DNA from: Ketogulonicigenium robustum
GTDB taxonomy: Bacteria > Pseudomonadota > Alphaproteobacteria > Rhodobacterales > Rhodobacteraceae
Length of the DNA stretch: 64,000 nt
Direction: 5' to 3'
Assembly (NCBI RefSeq): GCF_002117445.1
Contig: NZ_CP019937.1
Span: 1,857,501 to 1,921,500, forward strand
The notes beneath the pieces were generated by a model. It did no database searches. It was not told the origin of the DNA and was given only the letters and a program-made list of their open reading frames with translations. The stretch's first letter is position 1; every line of letters begins with the position of its first letter. Shown one piece after another: positions 651 to 22,871 of the stretch. The translations under genes were made by a program, and so were the position numbers.

Positions 651-2393
651 TCAGCGCAATTCCTCGGCCGGCGTGACCCCGAGGATACCAAGACCCGCAG
701 AAATCACAACAGCCACGGCGCGGATGAGGGCGATTTTCGCCTGTGACGTTTCGGCGTCCCCCTCTTGCAAGAAGCGCAGCGAGGTATCGTCGTTGCCACG
801 GTTCCACAGGGCGTGGAAATCCGATGCCAATTCATACAGATAGAAGGCAATCCGGTGCGGCTCGTTCCCGCGGGCGGCGATTTCGATCAGGCGGGGCCAT
901 TCGGCCAACTGGCGCATGACCTTCAGCTCGGCCTCGTGCCCGAGGCGCGACAGATCGGCGCCGATCAGCGCGGCATCCGACACATCCAACCCCGCATCGC
1001 GCGCGCGGCGCAGCACCGAATGCACGCGGGCATGGGCGTATTGCACGTAGAAAACGGGGTTGTCCTTGGATTGCTCGAGCACTTTGTCGAAGTCGAAATC
1101 CAGCGGCGCGTCGTTCTTGCGGGTCAGCATGACGAAGCGGGTGACGTCCGCCCCAGCTTGTTCGACCACATCGCGCAGCGTGACAAATGTGCCCGCGCGC
1201 TTCGACATCTTAAAGGGCTCGCCGTTTTTGAACAGCTTGACCAGCTGGATCAGCTTGACGTCCAGCGGCACCTTGCCCCCCGACAGCGCCGAAACAGCCG
1301 CCTTCATGCGTTTGACATAGCCGCCATGGTCGGCGCCGAACACGTCGATCAGCAGGTCAAAGCCGCGCTCGACTTTGTCGTAGTGGTAGGCGATGTCGGG
1401 CGCAAAATACGTCCATTGCCCGTCCGACTTCTTGATGGGGCGATCAACGTCGTCGCCATGCAGGGTCGAACGGAACAGCGTTTGCTCGCGCGGCTCCCAA
1501 TCCTCGGGCAACTTGCCTTTCGGCGGCTCCAGCACGCCTTCATAGATCAGCCCTTGGGCTTCCAGCTTGGCGATGGCCGATTCGATCTTGCCCGTGCCAT
1601 ACAGCGCCTTTTCCGAGGAAAAGACGTCCATTTTCACATTCAGCAGCGCCAGATCGGCGCGGATCATATCCATCATCTGCTGCGTGGCGAATTCGCGCAC
1701 GTCCAGCAGCCAGACGGATTCGGGCTGGTCCAGCAGGCTGTCGCCATACTTGTCTTTCAGCGCCTGTCCGACCTCAATCAGGTAATCGCCGGGGTAGAGC
1801 CCCTCGCGGATGTCGGGGGTCAGGCCGTTCGCCTCGCGGTAGCGTTCAAACGCAGATCGCGCCAGCACGTCGACCTGCGCGCCGCCATCGTTGATGTAGT
1901 ATTCGCGCGTGACATCATAGCCAGCGTAGGACAGCAGCGATGCCAGCGCATCGCCGAACACCGCGCCGCGTGTGTGGCCCACGTGCATCGGCCCCGTCGG
2001 GTTGGCAGAGACGTATTCAACGTTCACCCGCTGCCCTTGCCCCAGCGTCGAGCGACCAAAGCCCGCATCCGACAGTACGGCGCGCAGTACCTCTTGCCAC
2101 ACATCGGCGGCCAGACGCAGGTTCAAGAACCCAGGGCCCGCGACTTCGGCCTTTTCGACACGCGGATCTTGCACCAGCTTTGCGGCCAGCGCATCGGCGA
2201 TCACGCGCGGCTGGACACCTGCGGGTTTGGCCAGAACCATTGCGGCATTCGTGGCCATGTCGCCGTGGCCGGCGTCTCGCGGGGGTTCGACCGTGACATT
2301 ATCGGTCGCCAATCCCGCCGGGATCACACCTTCCGTTACAAGCTGGTCAAGGCAGGCAATCACAAGCGCCCGCATCTGGGTAAACAGGTTCAT
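651..2393 (-). CDS. argS: Arginyl-tRNA synthetase
   Basis: Class I aminoacyl-tRNA synthetase that charges tRNA-Arg with arginine in the cytoplasm. The 580-residue length is usual for bacterial ArgS. Visible signatures are the N-terminal additional domain (about 1-110), the HIGH-type motif HVGH at 137-140 within [13 protein letters not shown], the KMSK loop as KMSKRAG, and a C-terminal helical anticodon-binding domain ending in the typical [13 protein letters not shown]. The start MNLFTQ is supported by the divergent spacing to the helicase gene and by alignment of the N-terminal domain. A long open frame on the opposite strand (765-2552) is a codon-bias shadow of this gene. Confidence 0.97.
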
Positions 2394-2656
2394 TTCAGTC
2401 CTTCGGGCGGCCCGCGCCGCCTTGGCTGGTTGATCAGAATTCCCTGCGGTTTACCACGGACGGGCCGCGCGTCAACGTGCCCCTCCTGCAAAGGTGCCAC
2501 AATCGCGCGCAAAAACCCTGCAATGATTGACGCAAAGACCCAATTCAGATAATTGCCCTTGACCCCGCATACGGCGGGTGAACCGACGGGACGCTCAGAC
2601 CCATGCGTCCCTTTCTTTCATTCTTGCGGGGCCGTTCCCGCAATGACAGGACGCGA

Positions 2657-4210
2657 ATGACCGAATTTTCCGATCTGAACCTCGACCCGAAGGTTCTGCA
2701 GGCCGTTGCCGAAGCAGGCTACACCACACCGACCCCGATCCAAGCGGGCGCGATCCCCGAGGCGCTGGCCGGGCGCGACGTGCTGGGCATCGCCCAGACC
2801 GGCACCGGCAAAACCGCCAGCTTCACGCTGCCGATGATCCAACTGCTGTCGCAAGGCCGCGCCCGCGCGCGCATGCCGCGCAGCTTGGTGCTGTGCCCCA
2901 CGCGCGAGCTGGCCGCCCAAGTTGCCGAAAACTTCGACATGTATGCGAAGTATACCAAGCTGACCAAAGCCCTGCTGATCGGTGGCGTTTCCTTTAAAGA
3001 CCAAGAGGCGATGATCGACCGCGGTGTCGACGTGCTGATCGCCACCCCCGGTCGTCTGCTGGACCATTTCGAACGCGGCAAACTGCTGCTGACCGGCGTG
3101 CAGATCATGGTCGTGGACGAAGCCGACCGCATGCTGGACATGGGGTTCATCCCCGATATCGAGCGTATCTTCCAGCTGACGCCATTTACCCGCCAGACGC
3201 TGTTCTTCAGCGCAACCATGGCCCCCGAGATCGAGCGGATCACCAACACCTTCCTCTCCGCCCCCGCGCGAATAGAGGTGGCCCGCGCTGCCACGACCAA
3301 CCAGAACATCACCCAAGGCGTCGTTCTGTTCAAAGGCAGCAACAAAGAGCGCGAGCCGTCGGAAAAACGCGCCGTCCTGCGCGCGCTGATCGACGGCGAG
3401 GGCGAGGCGCTGACCAATGCCATCATCTTCTGCAACCGCAAGCTTGATGTCGATGTCGTCGCGAAATCGCTGAAGAAATACGGCTACAATGCCGAGCCGC
3501 TGCATGGCGATCTAGACCAATCGCAGCGGATGCGCACACTGGACGGCTTCCGCGACGGGTCGGTGAAGTTCCTCGTCGCCTCTGATGTTGCGGCGCGCGG
3601 GCTCGATATTCCGTCGGTCAGCCACGTGTTCAACTTCGATGTGCCCAGCCATGCCGAAGACTACGTCCACCGTATCGGCCGCACGGGCCGCGCAGGTCGC
3701 AAGGGTTCGACGCTGATGATCTGCGTGCCGCGCGACGAAAAGAATCTGGCCGCTATCGAAACGCTAGTCCAGCAAGAGATCCCGCGTGTCGAGAACCCGC
3801 TGAAAGACATGCCCGCCGTGCCTAAATCGCGAAGCGAGCGGAACGCCAAGCGCGCCGACGCCCCCGCGACCACGGCGGCAGAGGGCAAGAGCAGCGAAGG
3901 TAAGCAAGTCGAGCGTTCGCGCCGCCGCAAGCCCCGTCGCGAGGAGGCCGTCGCCGCCCCGCAGGCTGACGCCCCGCAAGATGTAGCGCAAGCCGCACCC
4001 AAGACTGCCGATACGACGGCGCACGATGACCGCCGCACCCGCGAAGACCGTGCCCCGCGTGAAGAGCGTGCCCCTCGCGAGGAACGTCGCCCACGCGAAG
4101 ACCGCCGCAACCGCGACGATCGCCACGACGCACTAGGCAACGGGGGCTGGGGTGATGACATGCCGGACTTCATCCGCTATAGTTTTGCCGAGCGACGCAA
4201 AAAGGCTTAA
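2657..4210 (+). CDS. rhlE: DEAD-box ATP-dependent RNA helicase, RhlE-like
   Basis: Two-RecA-domain RNA helicase that unwinds RNA duplexes during ribosome assembly or RNA decay. From the chosen ATG the protein is 517 residues. Motifs in order: Q motif in the first 35 residues, Walker A AQTGTGKT (46-53), PTRELAAQ, DEAD (154-157), SAT, DVAARGLD and HRIGRTGRAGR. Past about residue 375 comes a low-complexity, strongly charged tail with arginine-rich repeats, usual for RhlE-type enzymes and likely RNA-binding. An ATG 54 bases upstream (2603) is possible, but the ATG at 2657 has an AGGACG ribosome site at proper distance and starts exactly at the conserved domain. Divergent from argS. Confidence 0.93.
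   Translation: MTEFSDLNLDPKVLQAVAEAGYTTPTPIQAGAIPEALAGRDVLGIAQTGTGKTASFTLPMIQLLSQGRARARMPRSLVLCPTRELAAQVAENFDMYAKYTKLTKALLIGGVSFKDQEAMIDRGVDVLIATPGRLLDHFERGKLLLTGVQIMVVDEADRMLDMGFIPDIERIFQLTPFTRQTLFFSATMAPEIERITNTFLSAPARIEVARAATTNQNITQGVVLFKGSNKEREPSEKRAVLRALIDGEGEALTNAIIFCNRKLDVDVVAKSLKKYGYNAEPLHGDLDQSQRMRTLDGFRDGSVKFLVASDVAARGLDIPSVSHVFNFDVPSHAEDYVHRIGRTGRAGRKGSTLMICVPRDEKNLAAIETLVQQEIPRVENPLKDMPAVPKSRSERNAKRADAPATTAAEGKSSEGKQVERSRRRKPRREEAVAAPQADAPQDVAQAAPKTADTTAHDDRRTREDRAPREERAPREERRPREDRRNRDDRHDALGNGGWGDDMPDFIRYSFAERRKKA
4037..4126 (+). repeat. Five tandem hexapeptide-encoding repeats in the helicase tail
   Basis: Ninety bases encode five consecutive six-residue units of the form x-R-E/D-E/D-R-x (TREDRA, PREERA, PREERR, PREDRR, NRDDRH). 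Codons vary between units, so the repeat is conserved at protein rather than DNA level. Confidence 0.85.
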
Positions 4211-17031: not shown

Positions 17032-17433
17032 TCAGTGCAGCAGGCGACCGATCTGGCTACCGGCTGCGATTTGGCTGCGCCCAACCGCGCAAAACGTCTC
17101 GGGTTGGCCGTCAATCGCACCCAAATCCCGCAAGCGCCCGCGCGCGACGTCTTCCAGATTCCGCTTCTGCGTGCGGTCATCGACAAAGCTATCAATCTCG
17201 ACGCTGCTATAGCCGAGGCCCCGCGCGGTTGATTTAATTCCGTTCAGATACCCGATGCCGCGCAGCAGACGAATATTGACCGCCCCGCACACACGGCTGA
17301 TTTCATAGGCCATCGCGGCGGTGATCAGTGGCTCGGTCACTTGCGCCACTTGCCCCAAGGGCGGGCGCGCTTGGGCCAGTGCCATGGACGGCATTAGGGT
17401 CGTGACCATCATTGCTAACATAAAACGCCGCAT
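17032..17433 (-). CDS. DUF5333-type secreted protein inside the nuo operon
   Basis: A 133-residue protein with a Sec signal peptide (MRRFMLAMMVTTLMPSMALA) and a mature domain of about 110 residues with two conserved-looking cysteines. By position between nuoF and nuoG and by its features it matches, from memory, the DUF5333 family found in Rhodobacteraceae nuo operons. Function is unknown; a periplasmic location is predicted, which is surprising for complex I whose peripheral arm is cytoplasmic. The start at 17433 is backed by a GGAGG ribosome site; a longer frame to 17487 exists but would bury the signal peptide. Confidence 0.7.
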   Translation of the reverse strand: MRRFMLAMMVTTLMPSMALAQARPPLGQVAQVTEPLITAAMAYEISRVCGAVNIRLLRGIGYLNGIKSTARGLGYSSVEIDSFVDDRTQKRNLEDVARGRLRDLGAIDGQPETFCAVGRSQIAAGSQIGRLLH

Positions 17434-17508
17434 TTTCCGCCTCCAACCGCTTGCCATCAAAGTGTGCGGCGGGCCGCCAAGGTTCAAGGGGCGCGTGAAA
17501 TTGCGCGC

Positions 17509-18788: not shown

Positions 18789-19016
18789 CTACTTTCCCGC
18801 CTCGTTCTGGCGCGCACGCCACAGTTGAAACACGCCCCACAGCACCCAGCCGAAGCCCGCAAGGGCGATCAAATCCAGCAGGGCGCGTACGCGGTTCGAC
18901 AGGCCCATCGCGCCGCCGATCCATGTGGCCAAAATCCAGTAAACACCAACCGCAGCCATCGCGATGGCCAAGCGCTGGCCTTGCTCGGCCGATTTGCGGT
19001 CATTCTCAGTCGTCAT
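18789..19016 (-). CDS. DUF5337-type two-helix membrane protein inside the nuo operon
   Basis: A 75-residue protein with a polar N-terminus and two membrane helices (about 19-37 and 47-65). Its size, topology and location between nuoE and nuoF match, from memory, the DUF5337 family of Rhodobacteraceae. It overlaps nuoE by 4 bases and ends 2 bases before nuoF, so it is locked into the operon. A role as complex I accessory or assembly factor is inferred from position only. Confidence 0.7.
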
Positions 19017-19757: not shown

Positions 19758-20108
19758 TTAGGCACAGCGCGGGGTTATAACGCGGATTGTTCCGCTGGGG
19801 GTGACCTCGGCCCGGCCGGACGAGGCCAGCTGCGGGGCAAGTTCCATCAGTTGTTGCTGTGTCAGGTTCGCGCGCAACAGAACGCTGGCAACATTGCCCT
19901 GTTGCAGGATGCAACCCTCGGATTCGATCGAGGCCAGCAGGCGGTCAGCCGGCGCCAGATTCGACGCCGGCGGGGTTTGGGCGGCGGGCGCGGTTTGCGT
20001 CGGCGTCTGCTGCGCGCGGGTCAGCGAGGGGAACATATCGCTGGTGCAGCCTGCCAAGACACCCAGTGCAGCAAGCAAAGCGACGGGCTTGATGGTATCG
20101 ATCAACAT
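19758..20108 (-). CDS. Small lipoprotein encoded between nuoD and nuoE
   Basis: A 116-residue protein with a lipoprotein signal peptide ending in the lipobox LAGC (Cys21), a Pro/Thr/Gln-rich linker (about 30-50), and a C-terminal domain of about 65 residues containing two further cysteines. I do not recognise a domain. The Asp two positions after the lipidated Cys is absent (CTSD), so outer-membrane sorting by Lol is likely. It has 28 and 38 base gaps to nuoE and nuoD. Its presence in the operon is unexplained. Confidence 0.65.
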   Translation of the reverse strand: MLIDTIKPVALLAALGVLAGCTSDMFPSLTRAQQTPTQTAPAAQTPPASNLAPADRLLASIESEGCILQQGNVASVLLRANLTQQQLMELAPQLASSGRAEVTPSGTIRVITPRCA

Positions 20109-20146: not shown

Positions 20147-21394
20147 TTACCGATCAACCTCGCCGAATACGATATCAAGTGTGGCAATAATCGCCGTGAC
20201 ATCGGCAAGAAGATGCCCTTTGCTCAGGTGATCCATCGCTTGCAGATGCGCAAAACCCGGCGCGCGCAGCTTGACGCGGTAGGGTTTGTTGCTGCCGTCG
20301 CTGACCAGATAAACGCCGAATTCGCCTTTTGGGGCCTCGACAGCGGCGTAAACCTCGCCTGCGGGCAGGTGGAACCCCTCGGAATATAGTTTGAAGTGAT
20401 GGATCAGTGCCTCCATCGAGCCCTTCATCTCGGCCCGCGGGGGCGGCGTCAGCTTGCCGCGCGCCAGCACATCGCCGGGGCTGCTGCGCAGTTTTTGGCA
20501 GGCCTGCAGAATGATTTTGACCGATTCGCGCATCTCGGCGACGCGGCACAAGAAGCGGTCGTAGCAATCGCCGTTGGTGCCGACAGGAATGTCGAAATCG
20601 AATTCGTCATAGCGTTCATAGGGCTGCGCGCGGCGCAAATCCCACGCCATACCCGAGCCGCGCACCATCACCCCCGAAAACCCGAGGCTGACCGCCTCCT
20701 CTTTCGAGACGATGGCGATGTCGACCATGCGTTGTTTGAAGATGCGGCTTTCAACCAACAGCCCCGCCAGATCGTCGACGAAGGCGGGGAAGCCCTCGGC
20801 CCAAGCTTCGATGTCGTCGATCAAGTCGGGGGGCAGATCCTGATGCACGCCGCCGGGGCGGAAGTAGGCCGCATGCAGGCGCGCGCCGCAGGCCCGCTCG
20901 TAAAACAGCATCAGCTTCTCGCGTTCCTCGAAGCCCCACAGCGGCGGTGTCAGGGCGCCGACATCCATCGCGCCGGTTGTGAGGTTCATCAGGTGGTTCA
21001 GCACGCGGCCGATCTCGCAAAACAAGACGCGGATCAGGCTGGCACGGCGCGGCACGGTGATGCCGGCCAGCCGCTCGATCGCCAGACACCACGCGTGTTC
21101 CTGATTCATCGGGGCGACATAATCCAGCCGATCAAGATACGGCAGGTTTTGCAGATACGTGCGGCTTTCCATCAGTTTTTCGGTGCCGCGATGCAGCAGG
21201 CCGACGTGCGGGTCGCAGCGCTCCACCACTTCGCCATCCAACTCCAGCACAAGGCGCAGAACGCCGTGGGCAGCGGGGTGCTGCGGGCCGAAGTTGATGT
21301 TGAAATTACGCACCTTTTGCAGGTCGCTTTGGTGGTCGTCAAACCCCTGATCGACCGGCATAATCGGCGCAACTTCAACGGTTTGATGGCTCAT
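20147..21394 (-). CDS. nuoD: NADH-quinone oxidoreductase subunit D
   Basis: 49-kDa-type subunit that forms the quinone site together with NuoB, 415 residues. The N-terminal [18 protein letters not shown] with the quinone-contacting histidine, GLLHRGTEK and the C-terminal D-I-V-F-G-E-V-D-R end are conserved. The ATG (21394) overlaps the stop of the sulfotransferase-like gene by 4 bases. The frame stays open upstream to 21637 but this is within that gene. Confidence 0.97.
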
Positions 21395-22281
21395 TGCGAT
21401 AACTCCTCCTCGGGCTGGGCAGCGGAAACCTCGCGGGTTTCGGGCAACCAGCTGGCGGGCATCTCGCCCAGTATTTCGGCAACGGCGTCGTATTGGTCGC
21501 GCAACTGCCAGCGCGCGGCGGCCATCATGGCTGGATCCATACCGGCGTAAGACGGCTGGAACACGGGCTCGTCCGCAGGCACCCCCGCAGGGGCGATCTT
21601 CAGCGCGCGGCAAAGGGCGGCGACGCCAGTGGCACACAGGGCTTGTTCGGCTACCAGAACATACAAGCGCCCGCGCGGCACGACAGCCTGCAAGCGGCGC
21701 AGGGCGCTAGCATAATCGCCCCGCATCATGATGTGCCCCTCGAGGCCCTGCAGCGCGCGGCGCAGGATGAAATTGGCCTTGGCATCCAGATCATCGCCCG
21801 CGCGCAAGCGCCGCGCGGCGTTCATGCGCACATGCGCCCACAGCCGCGCCACGGGGTCGCACATGATGAACAAAAACACGCTGCGGCTGGAAAAGGCGAC
21901 GGCGCGCTCCAGCTCGGCAATGGATAACATACTGTAACTGGGGGTGAAATCCATCGCGTAGGCACCCGCGTGGTCAACCAGCGCAGCGGCCAGATAGGCG
22001 TGATAGGCCGCATCATCAGTGCGGTCGTATTCCAGCACCGCGGCCAATTCTGCCAGATCGAGGCCGGGGCCGTCCAGCCCGTGGCGCTCGGTCATCAGCT
22101 CGGCCCGCGCATTCAGCGCCTGCACGTGCTCTTCCGCATCGCGTGGGGCGAAGGTATCCCAGTAGTGCAGCTCCTCTAGCGGTAGGCTACGCACATCGGG
22201 GCTTTGCGCCAGCGCGTTGAACAGCCAGCTTTGGCCCGCCTGCGCCGCCCCCATGCCGAAAATCACCGGAAGATCGCTCAT
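21391..22281 (-). CDS. Sulfotransferase-like protein embedded in the nuo operon
   Basis: A 296-residue cytosolic protein whose N-terminus ([16 protein letters not shown], from residue 9) resembles the 5'-phosphosulfate loop of PAPS-dependent sulfotransferases, and whose middle ([15 protein letters not shown]) resembles the 3'-phosphate-binding motif. Both motifs are eroded: the loop has Gln where Lys is usual and the second motif has Cys-Asp for the usual Arg-Asn and Ala-His for Ser-His. It may have lost activity. It overlaps nuoC by 4 bases at its start and nuoD by 4 bases at its end, so translation is coupled on both sides. A sulfated substrate cannot be guessed. Confidence 0.7.
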
Positions 22282-22871
22282 ACACCCTCACCTTTATGTT
22301 CGGTTTCATCCCCCGGAAGGGTATGATCCATCCCCTCCCATGGCGAGAGGAAATCGAACTGGCGGTAGGATTGCACAAGCGAGACGGGCGTATGGACGAC
22401 CCGCTTTTCGACCTCGTCGTAGACGACCTCGGTATAGCCTGTCGTTGGAAAATCTTTGCGCAGCGGGTGGCCGGAAAAACCATAATCGGTCAACAGGCGG
22501 CGCAGGTCGGGGTGGCCGCTGAACAGCAGGCCGAACATGTCGAAGACCTCGCGTTCGAACCAATCGGCGGCGGGGTAGACAGGGATCACCGACGGGGTAA
22601 TCGCACCATCGGCCACGGGGGTATGAATGCGAATGCGGTGGTTTTTCGTCATCGAGAGCAGATGGTAGACCAACACAAAACGCGGCGCGCGGGCGGGGTA
22701 GTCGATGGCTGTAATATCGACCAGCGTGCCAAAGCGGCACTGCGGATCGTCGCGCAAAAACGCCAGCAGTGCGGGCAGATCGGCGGGGGCAGCGGTCAGG
22801 GTCAGCTCGCCGTAAGCGATCTGGGTCTGCACGTTGAAAGCCGCAGTGATGTGATCTGCCAGCGCCTGCAT
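22278..22871 (-). CDS. nuoC: NADH-quinone oxidoreductase subunit C
   Basis: 30-kDa-type subunit of the connecting module, 197 residues. The signature [19 protein letters not shown], followed by [12 protein letters not shown], is intact. It is a separate gene from nuoD here, unlike the NuoCD fusion of enterobacteria. ATG at 22871 lies 3 bases after the nuoB stop. Confidence 0.96.

What the first reader, a model, noticed from the sequence alone, without database searches (positions are those of the whole stretch)
21391..22281. Sulfotransferase-like gene wired into the nuo operon by overlaps on both sides
The sequence shows 4-base ATGA overlaps with nuoC upstream and nuoD downstream, so this gene is translated in lockstep with complex I subunits. 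Known nuo operons of Rhodobacter and Paracoccus contain unidentified frames, but a sulfotransferase fold with eroded PAPS-binding residues (Gln for Lys in the loop, Cys-Asp for Arg-Asn in the second motif) is unexpected. It may be a repurposed fold that helps assemble or regulate complex I.
Basis: partly seen in the sequence, partly recalled or inferred. Interest (0 to 1): 0.6.

Follow-up and report, generated by a model that had tools for sequence, protein, structure and literature searches.

The report
Dead sulfotransferase in complex I operon
Many alphaproteobacteria of one family carry a gene for a sulfate-transferring enzyme inside the gene cluster for respiratory complex I, and in this species that gene has lost the residues needed to hold its sulfate donor while keeping its fold, which suggests a former enzyme kept for another role, possibly at complex I.

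Summary
The gene is real: minus strand, 21391-22281, 296 aa, with 4-base overlaps with nuoC and nuoD. It has a sulfotransferase fold (AlphaFold pLDDT 90.7; best solved match Z 19.7). It belongs to a fast-evolving family found in the nuoC-nuoD gap of many Rhodobacteraceae: 30 of 99 resolved gaps; 78 of 80 named relatives lie between nuoC and nuoD.

The relatives look like live enzymes: 144 of 145 other nuo-linked rows keep the four PAPS-site residues. The window copy alone lost all four (K14Q, T17Q, R141C, S149A). It keeps the acceptor-side Glu37/His39/Asp42 and most conserved scaffold columns. It is about 14 charge units more acidic than relatives; its NuoB, NuoC and NuoD show no such shift.

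The gap is an accessory slot: other genomes have unrelated small genes there, and Ketogulonicigenium vulgare has none. So the gene is no obligatory complex I part.

Best reading: a pseudoenzyme retained as a binding protein; a dead methyltransferase bound to Paracoccus complex I (PMC11522691) is the precedent. A relic kept open for translation of nuoD is a serious rival.

The parts
21391..22281 (-). sulfotransferase-fold gene between nuoC and nuoD, 296 aa, PAPS site lost
22278..22281 (-). ATGA overlap of the nuoC stop with the start of the gene
21391..21394 (-). ATGA overlap of the gene's stop with the nuoD start
22225..22251 (-). former 5'-phosphosulfate-binding loop, residues 11-19 GAAQAGQSW (family GATKAGTSW): K14Q and T17Q
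22156..22176 (-). acceptor-side motif, residues 36-42 EELHYWD (family KELHYFD): catalytic-base Glu37, His39 and Asp42 kept, K36E
21835..21861 (-). former 3'-phosphate site, residues 141-149 CDPVARLWA (family RDPVxRLWS): R141C and S149A
22278..22871 (-). nuoC (Complex1_30kDa)
20147..21394 (-). nuoD (Complex1_49kDa)

Best explanation
The gene descends from a Rhodobacteraceae sulfotransferase carried in a slot between nuoC and nuoD. In relatives it is probably a working PAPS enzyme of the 3-OST/NDST structural class. In this species it can probably no longer hold PAPS: the loop Lys and Thr and the 3'-phosphate Arg and Ser are gone. The fold, the acceptor-side Glu/His/Asp and most of the scaffold are kept, so it most likely works as a non-catalytic binding protein, made together with NuoC and NuoD. 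It would bind its old acceptor or a surface of the complex I peripheral arm, in the way the dead methyltransferase CI-PIMT sits on NDUFS3 (NuoC) in Paracoccus. SHOWN by computation: position, family, fold, loss of the conserved residues, charge shift. INFERRED: no PAPS binding, and that a protein is made. GUESSED: the binding partner.
For: Fold: AlphaFold pLDDT 90.7, pTM 0.87; Z 19.7 to 3rnl and 18.5 to 3-OST-3 with bound PAP. Family and place: 30 of 99 gaps; 78 of 80 named relatives between nuoC and nuoD plus one beside nuoD at a contig end. Selective loss: all 4 cofactor-side columns changed against 3 of 27 other columns conserved at 93% or more (Fisher p 0.0011; the set was named after the losses were seen, so the p is descriptive). 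Strongly diverged copies (L051 and L194, one genome, 7 deviations; L018 6; L016 and L209 5) keep all four with at most Arg for Lys; L142_1 (6 deviations) has S149A. Acceptor-side E37/H39 and D42 are kept; the motif aligns with 3-OST E-x-H-F-F-D, E184/H186/D189 in 3-OST-3. Charge shift specific to this protein: 0 of 125 relatives as acidic over shared columns; NuoC 1.2 units more acidic on average, NuoD and NuoB slightly more basic. Third-position GC 0.78, within the 0.73-0.82 of five nuo genes. PAPS shortage is not the cause: an APS kinase gene is present. Precedent: PMC11522691 section 11.
Against: No direct sign of any contact with complex I. The sister species lacks the gene, nuoC and nuoD overlapping directly. 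One nuo-linked copy elsewhere is split over two frames (L276), so the gene can be lost. Acidification could simply follow loss of selection for a polyanion pocket. No second strain of this species was available for a dN/dS test, and the rate comparison with NuoC+NuoD was inconclusive. The structure model leans on intact relatives in its alignment. The cofactor set is fixed by homology: loop Lys and helix Ser from PMC11625862 passages, Arg and Thr as contacts from recall. First-position GC (0.72) is above that of five nuo genes (0.62-0.68).
Confidence: 0.42

Rival explanations
1. Relic: the enzyme has recently lost its function and the reading frame stays open only because a stop or frameshift would reduce translation of nuoD and the genes behind it. 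The protein itself does nothing.
For: Patchy presence: 37 changes on the NuoC+NuoD tree, of which well-supported branches force 14. Absent from K. vulgare. A linked copy split over two frames exists in another genus (L276). The two overlaps would make breaks costly. The window copy has the fourth longest end branch of 128 (1.68, median 0.42; 1.08, median 0.56, in the tree), though it also lacks near relatives.
Against: Loss is concentrated on the cofactor residues (4 of 4 against 3 of 27), where drift should hit conserved columns alike; but an early loss followed by little time would look similar. Clean loss is possible, as K. vulgare shows. Distance relative to NuoC+NuoD is not raised (94th of 98 by residual), although few control pairs exist at that distance.
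Confidence: 0.33
2. Complex I helper throughout the family: the enzyme modifies a complex I subunit, or quinone, in all carriers, and this species uses a changed version of the same function.
For: Linkage to nuo is strong and widespread. Sulfated quinone has a mycobacterial precedent, sulfomenaquinone (search listing only; the chemistry and enzyme are recalled).
Against: 69 of 99 gaps lack the gene. The same slot carries unrelated genes. Three close family members have no nuo genes in the fetched stretch (L008, L009, L072). The Paracoccus complex I paper names no sulfotransferase among the extra subunits (abstract, passages and section 11; whether that strain has the gene was not tested).
Confidence: 0.15
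3. The window protein is still an active sulfotransferase with an unusual donor site.
For: Acceptor-side residues are intact; the structure model is confident; PAPS can be made.
Against: Lys or Arg in the loop and Ser on the 3'-phosphate helix define sulfotransferases (PMC11625862, passages); K162A of 3-OST-3 leaves under 1% activity (PMC8341778, passage).
Confidence: 0.06

Closest known systems
Sulfotransfer_3 (PF13469) bacterial sulfotransferases, e.g. 3rnl of Alicyclobacillus
   Same: fold over residues 2-280, Z 19.7, 3.0 A over 228 residues; 24 of 25 members of alignment A1 match PF13469 at E 0.01, all but the window protein
   Different: window protein lacks the PAPS-loop Lys and Thr and the 3'-phosphate Arg and Ser and falls below the Pfam cut-off
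Heparan sulfate 3-O-sulfotransferases (3-OST-1, -3, -5)
   Same: Z 18.1-18.5 for 1vkj, 1t8t and 3bd9; Glu-x-His-x-x-Asp acceptor motif shared
   Different: no PAPS-loop Lys; 15-20% identity; bacterial and nuo-linked
CI-PIMT, dead L-isoaspartyl methyltransferase subunit of Paracoccus denitrificans complex I (PMC11522691, section 11)
   Same: an enzyme that lost cofactor-binding residues and has a surface charge opposite to its live relative, in a related alphaproteobacterium, tied to complex I
   Different: unrelated protein; CI-PIMT is seen in the complex and also lost acceptor residues; contact with complex I is not shown here; the window genome has two PIMT-family genes of its own, so this gene is no replacement by count

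Membership tests
PAPS-dependent sulfotransferase (enzyme) | sulfotransferase fold | tested here: met
   predicted model
PAPS-dependent sulfotransferase (enzyme) | Lys or Arg in the PAPS-binding loop | tested here: not met
   Gln14; K or R in all 145 other linked rows
PAPS-dependent sulfotransferase (enzyme) | Ser on the 3'-phosphate-binding helix | tested here: not met
   Ala149; Ser in 144 of 145 others
PAPS-dependent sulfotransferase (enzyme) | acceptor-side catalytic base (Glu or His) | tested here: met
   Glu37 and His39 kept; assignment by alignment to 3-OST
PAPS-dependent sulfotransferase (enzyme) | sulfate transfer from PAPS | not testable with these tools
   needs an assay
nuoC-nuoD slot sulfotransferase family of Rhodobacteraceae (defined here) | sequence match to the family | tested here: met
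   single-protein hits to linked relatives, best E 1.0e-46, roughly 28-43% identity; profile match 309.8 bits (the profile includes this sequence)
nuoC-nuoD slot sulfotransferase family of Rhodobacteraceae (defined here) | lies between nuoC and nuoD, same strand | tested here: met
nuoC-nuoD slot sulfotransferase family of Rhodobacteraceae (defined here) | intact PAPS residues | tested here: not met
complex I supernumerary subunit | found in the purified complex | not testable with these tools
   needs purification
complex I supernumerary subunit | sequence match to a chain of a solved complex I | tested here: inconclusive
   one 55-residue match, E 0.11, to a NADH-binding 51 kD subunit (9mqx), taken as chance; the family profile finds sulfotransferases and one 12-bit stray at E up to 1

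The most novel reading that the evidence does not exclude
The nuoC-nuoD junction of Rhodobacteraceae is a loading slot for lineage-specific accessory subunits of complex I. Unrelated proteins (sulfotransferase, small membrane protein, lumazine-binding-like, GFA-like, FlK-like) enter there, are translated beside NuoC and NuoD, and can become structural parts after losing their own chemistry. The window gene would be a sulfotransferase caught after that change, a second case beside CI-PIMT.
Probability: 0.2. Interest if true: 0.78.

Novelty: new variant of a known kind. Interest (0 to 1): 0.5.

Why it matters
It links an unassigned gene family to complex I genes in a tractable bacterial group and offers a natural pair for experiment: apparently live copies in most carriers and one dead copy. 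If the protein binds complex I, it would show that dead enzymes are recruited there more than once. If it does not, it shows how coupling inside a key operon can keep a dead gene open. Nothing about this linkage appeared in the searches made, in an open-access library only: 'sulfotransferase' with 'nuo operon' (one paper, whose nuo passages are unrelated), with 'complex I' and 'Paracoccus denitrificans' (one paper, unrelated by title), and with 'nuoC' and 'nuoD' (none). Of 15 papers holding two of 'nuo operon', 'Rhodobacter' and 'unidentified reading frames', 12 were listed; two of these were searched inside, and the word sulfotransferase does not occur in the R. sphaeroides complex I paper PMC4859585.

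Tried and rejected
Loss of the PAPS supply as the cause of decay: rejected, an APS kinase gene is present in G000 and in all 12 genomes given to that search. Replacement of CI-PIMT: not supported, two PIMT-family genes in both G000 and G001 (which of them is CI-PIMT-like was not tested). Another copy of this sulfotransferase family in the genome: none found with the family profile at E up to 1. A family-wide dead enzyme: rejected. The nuo-linked gene elsewhere in the class: 14 of 337 genomes matched at E 1e-8 or better, 18 places, and only G335 and the window itself had nuo genes in the short stretch fetched around each match; few of the genomes listed there belong to the window's family. Relative-rate test against NuoC+NuoD: inconclusive, because few control pairs lie at the window's distance. 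The first genome-contig scan with the single protein found no relative. Naming the genome from its own small contigs gave only distant matches; G001 was named instead through its plasmid, and 77% of a 6 kb piece of G000 contig C2 matched K. vulgare plasmids at 78%. NuoD in the plasmid collection gave no Rhodobacteraceae among the rows shown, so Paracoccus nuo could not be checked. Paper searches for PAPS motif names gave nothing or mostly unrelated papers. The second structure model was not superposed on the first.

Full report
WHAT IS THERE. The window (G000:C1:1857501-1921500) holds a nuo operon on the minus strand. Between nuoC (22278-22871) and nuoD (20147-21394) lies one ORF of 296 aa, 21391-22281, minus strand. 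It shares ATGA with nuoC at 22278-22281 and with nuoD at 21391-21394. Such overlaps are common in this operon (also nuoE/DUF5337 and nuoJ/nuoK), so they show close packing and probable translational coupling, not a special link.

ORGANISM. G001, the only other genome of the genus held, is Ketogulonicigenium vulgare WSH-001: a 6000-base piece of its contig C2 (242,715 bases) matches NC_017385.1 (242,715 bases) at 100%. The window is therefore a Ketogulonicigenium of another species; K. robustum is the only other named one in the taxonomy, so that name is inference. In G001 nuoC and nuoD overlap directly by 4 bases (L275), and neither the protein nor the family profile finds a copy there. G036 is very probably Dinoroseobacter shibae: its contig C3 has 152,970 bases, as has the D. 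shibae plasmid hit at the same place; its nuo-linked copy (L010) has all four PAPS residues.

FOLD. Pfam sees only a sub-threshold Sulfotransfer_3 match (14 bits, cut-off 27). With 41 relatives aligned, AlphaFold2 gives pLDDT 90.7 and pTM 0.87. The best solved matches are the bacterial sulfotransferase 3rnl (Z 19.7, 228 residues, 3.0 A), then 3-OST-3 with PAP (Z 18.5), 3-OST-5, 3-OST-1 and NDST1. The aligned relatives carry mostly intact motifs and may guide the model. A relative from Rhodovulum robiginosum was modelled too (pLDDT 94.9); the two models were not superposed.

FAMILY AND PLACE. One hundred and thirteen of 295 family genomes, each of another genus, hold a match at E 1e-8 or better; these include sulfotransferases outside nuo. 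Of the 30 loci, 16 lie at nuo, the window included; of the 28 further loci (L061-L088), 27 do. Of these, 78 lie between nuoC and nuoD, one (L160) has nuoD on one side and a contig end on the other, and one (L135) is elsewhere. Records that bear a genus name are, as I recall their placement, Rhodobacteraceae in the old wide sense. That scan's patterns include the PAPS loop, so it favours intact copies; the genome search sets do not use such patterns. To look at the gap itself I fetched 101 stretches: 100 family genomes from the capped list (the 80 with NuoC nearest the window's and 20 from the end of the list) plus G001. Ninety-nine were resolved and 30 hold the sulfotransferase; in two no nuoD was found in the stretch. 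In a tree of 94 sulfotransferases, 78 linked and 16 unlinked rows need 7 changes of label, with unlinked L008, L009 and L072 nearest to linked ones.

LIVE RELATIVES, DEAD WINDOW COPY. In 49 linked relatives from the genome search, position 14 is Lys in 46 and Arg in 3, 17 is Thr in 49, 141 Arg in 49, 149 Ser in 49. In the larger set of 149 linked rows, 2 are the window, 2 are fragments, and 144 of the other 145 (129 distinct) keep all four, counting Arg for Lys and Ser for Thr. Seventy-six of the 145 do not come from the pattern scan, and all 76 (62 distinct) keep them. The exception is a second tandem copy with S149A (L142_1). The window has Gln, Gln, Cys and Ala, and also K36E. Glu37 and His39 and Asp42 are kept. 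By alignment these match the catalytic base Glu184, His186 and Asp189 of 3-OST-3 (PMC8341778, passages). The loop Lys and helix Ser define the sulfotransferase cofactor site (PMC11625862, passages); Arg141 and Thr17 as PAPS contacts are recalled. Of 31 columns conserved in at least 93% of 144 relatives, the window changed all 4 cofactor columns and 3 of the other 27 (H27, K36, M127; Fisher p 0.0011). The cofactor set was named after the losses were seen, so this p is descriptive. The most diverged relatives have 5-7 changes in these columns, yet L051, L194, L018, L016 and L209 keep Lys or Arg, Thr, Arg and Ser; L142_1 alone has lost one. This looks like a targeted loss.

CHARGE. Over shared columns the window protein is on average 14.3 units more acidic than 125 relatives (linked or not), none of which is as acidic. 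For NuoC the same difference is 1.2; NuoD and NuoB of the window are slightly more basic than relatives (2.3 and 1.5). Whole-protein net charge is -15 against a mean of +4.2, SD 3.8, lowest -8, in linked relatives. The shift is largest in residues 51-105, then in 251-296 and 1-50. It may reflect a new surface or only the end of selection for binding a polyanion.

A SLOT, NOT A FIXED SUBUNIT. In the 99 gaps, 33 are 60 bases or less with nothing assigned, 30 have the sulfotransferase, 23 a small membrane protein of about 57 aa or its longer kin, 8 a Lumazine_bd_2-like protein, 4 a GFA-like protein, 3 an FlK-like thioesterase, and 10 are unassigned; some gaps hold more than one. Presence of the sulfotransferase needs 37 changes on a NuoC+NuoD tree of 192 rows (123 carriers, an enriched set), against 56.5 in shuffles; branches with good support force 14. 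Sulfotransferase distances follow NuoC+NuoD distances (r 0.50, 0 of 999 permutations as high), so much of the history may be vertical. Tandem pairs occur (L084, L100, L110, L125, L142, L160, L253, L277) and one linked copy is split over two frames (L276). The gene is thus widespread but dispensable.

MECHANISM. The enzyme's acceptor in relatives is unknown. For the window copy the most likely account is a binding protein that no longer transfers sulfate. Its partner may be the former acceptor or complex I. The closest precedent was found in the literature: purified Paracoccus denitrificans complex I carries CI-PIMT, a methyltransferase that lost SAM and substrate residues, with a surface charge opposite to the free enzyme, bound to NDUFS3, the NuoC equivalent (PMC11522691, section 11 read whole; other parts as passages). 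The window genome has two PIMT-family matches, and all 12 genomes given to that search have two or three, so the sulfotransferase is not a substitute by count. A relic kept open for nuoD translation explains most data nearly as well; only within-species selection data or a deletion can decide.

LIMITS. No second strain of the species was available; no expression data; papers were searched only in an open-access library; the gap survey leans towards genomes with NuoC close to the window's.

Noticed in passing
nuoC-nuoD gaps of L202, L231, L268, L270 and others (23 of 99 gaps): A small membrane-protein-like ORF of about 57 aa (e.g. L202: TIPMLKLLPHFGINKYWA) sits in the same slot; Pfam gives only a sub-threshold DUF2484 match and no solved structure matches.
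   Followed up: partly
gaps of L191, L273 (Lumazine_bd_2-like), L211, L218, L247 (GFA-like), L204, L185 (FlK-like): Other unrelated small genes that look like enzymes occupy the same nuoC-nuoD slot, several with a 4-base overlap with nuoC.
   Followed up: partly
window 18789-19016 and 17032-17487, minus strand: DUF5337 and DUF5333 proteins between nuoE/nuoF and nuoF/nuoG; no solved structure match at E 0.01.
   Followed up: no
window 19758-20108, minus strand: 116-aa ORF between nuoD and nuoE, lipoprotein-like by eye, with no Pfam match at E 0.01.
   Followed up: no
L276 (G310) about 2285-3122: The nuo-linked sulfotransferase is split over two frames: pseudogene or sequencing error.
   Followed up: no
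L196 (G225): A sulfotransferase directly follows nuoC but no nuoD was found in the 3.9 kb stretch.
   Followed up: no
L072 and L135: Close family members with no nuo genes in the fetched stretch; L072 has one stop inside its matched frame.
   Followed up: no
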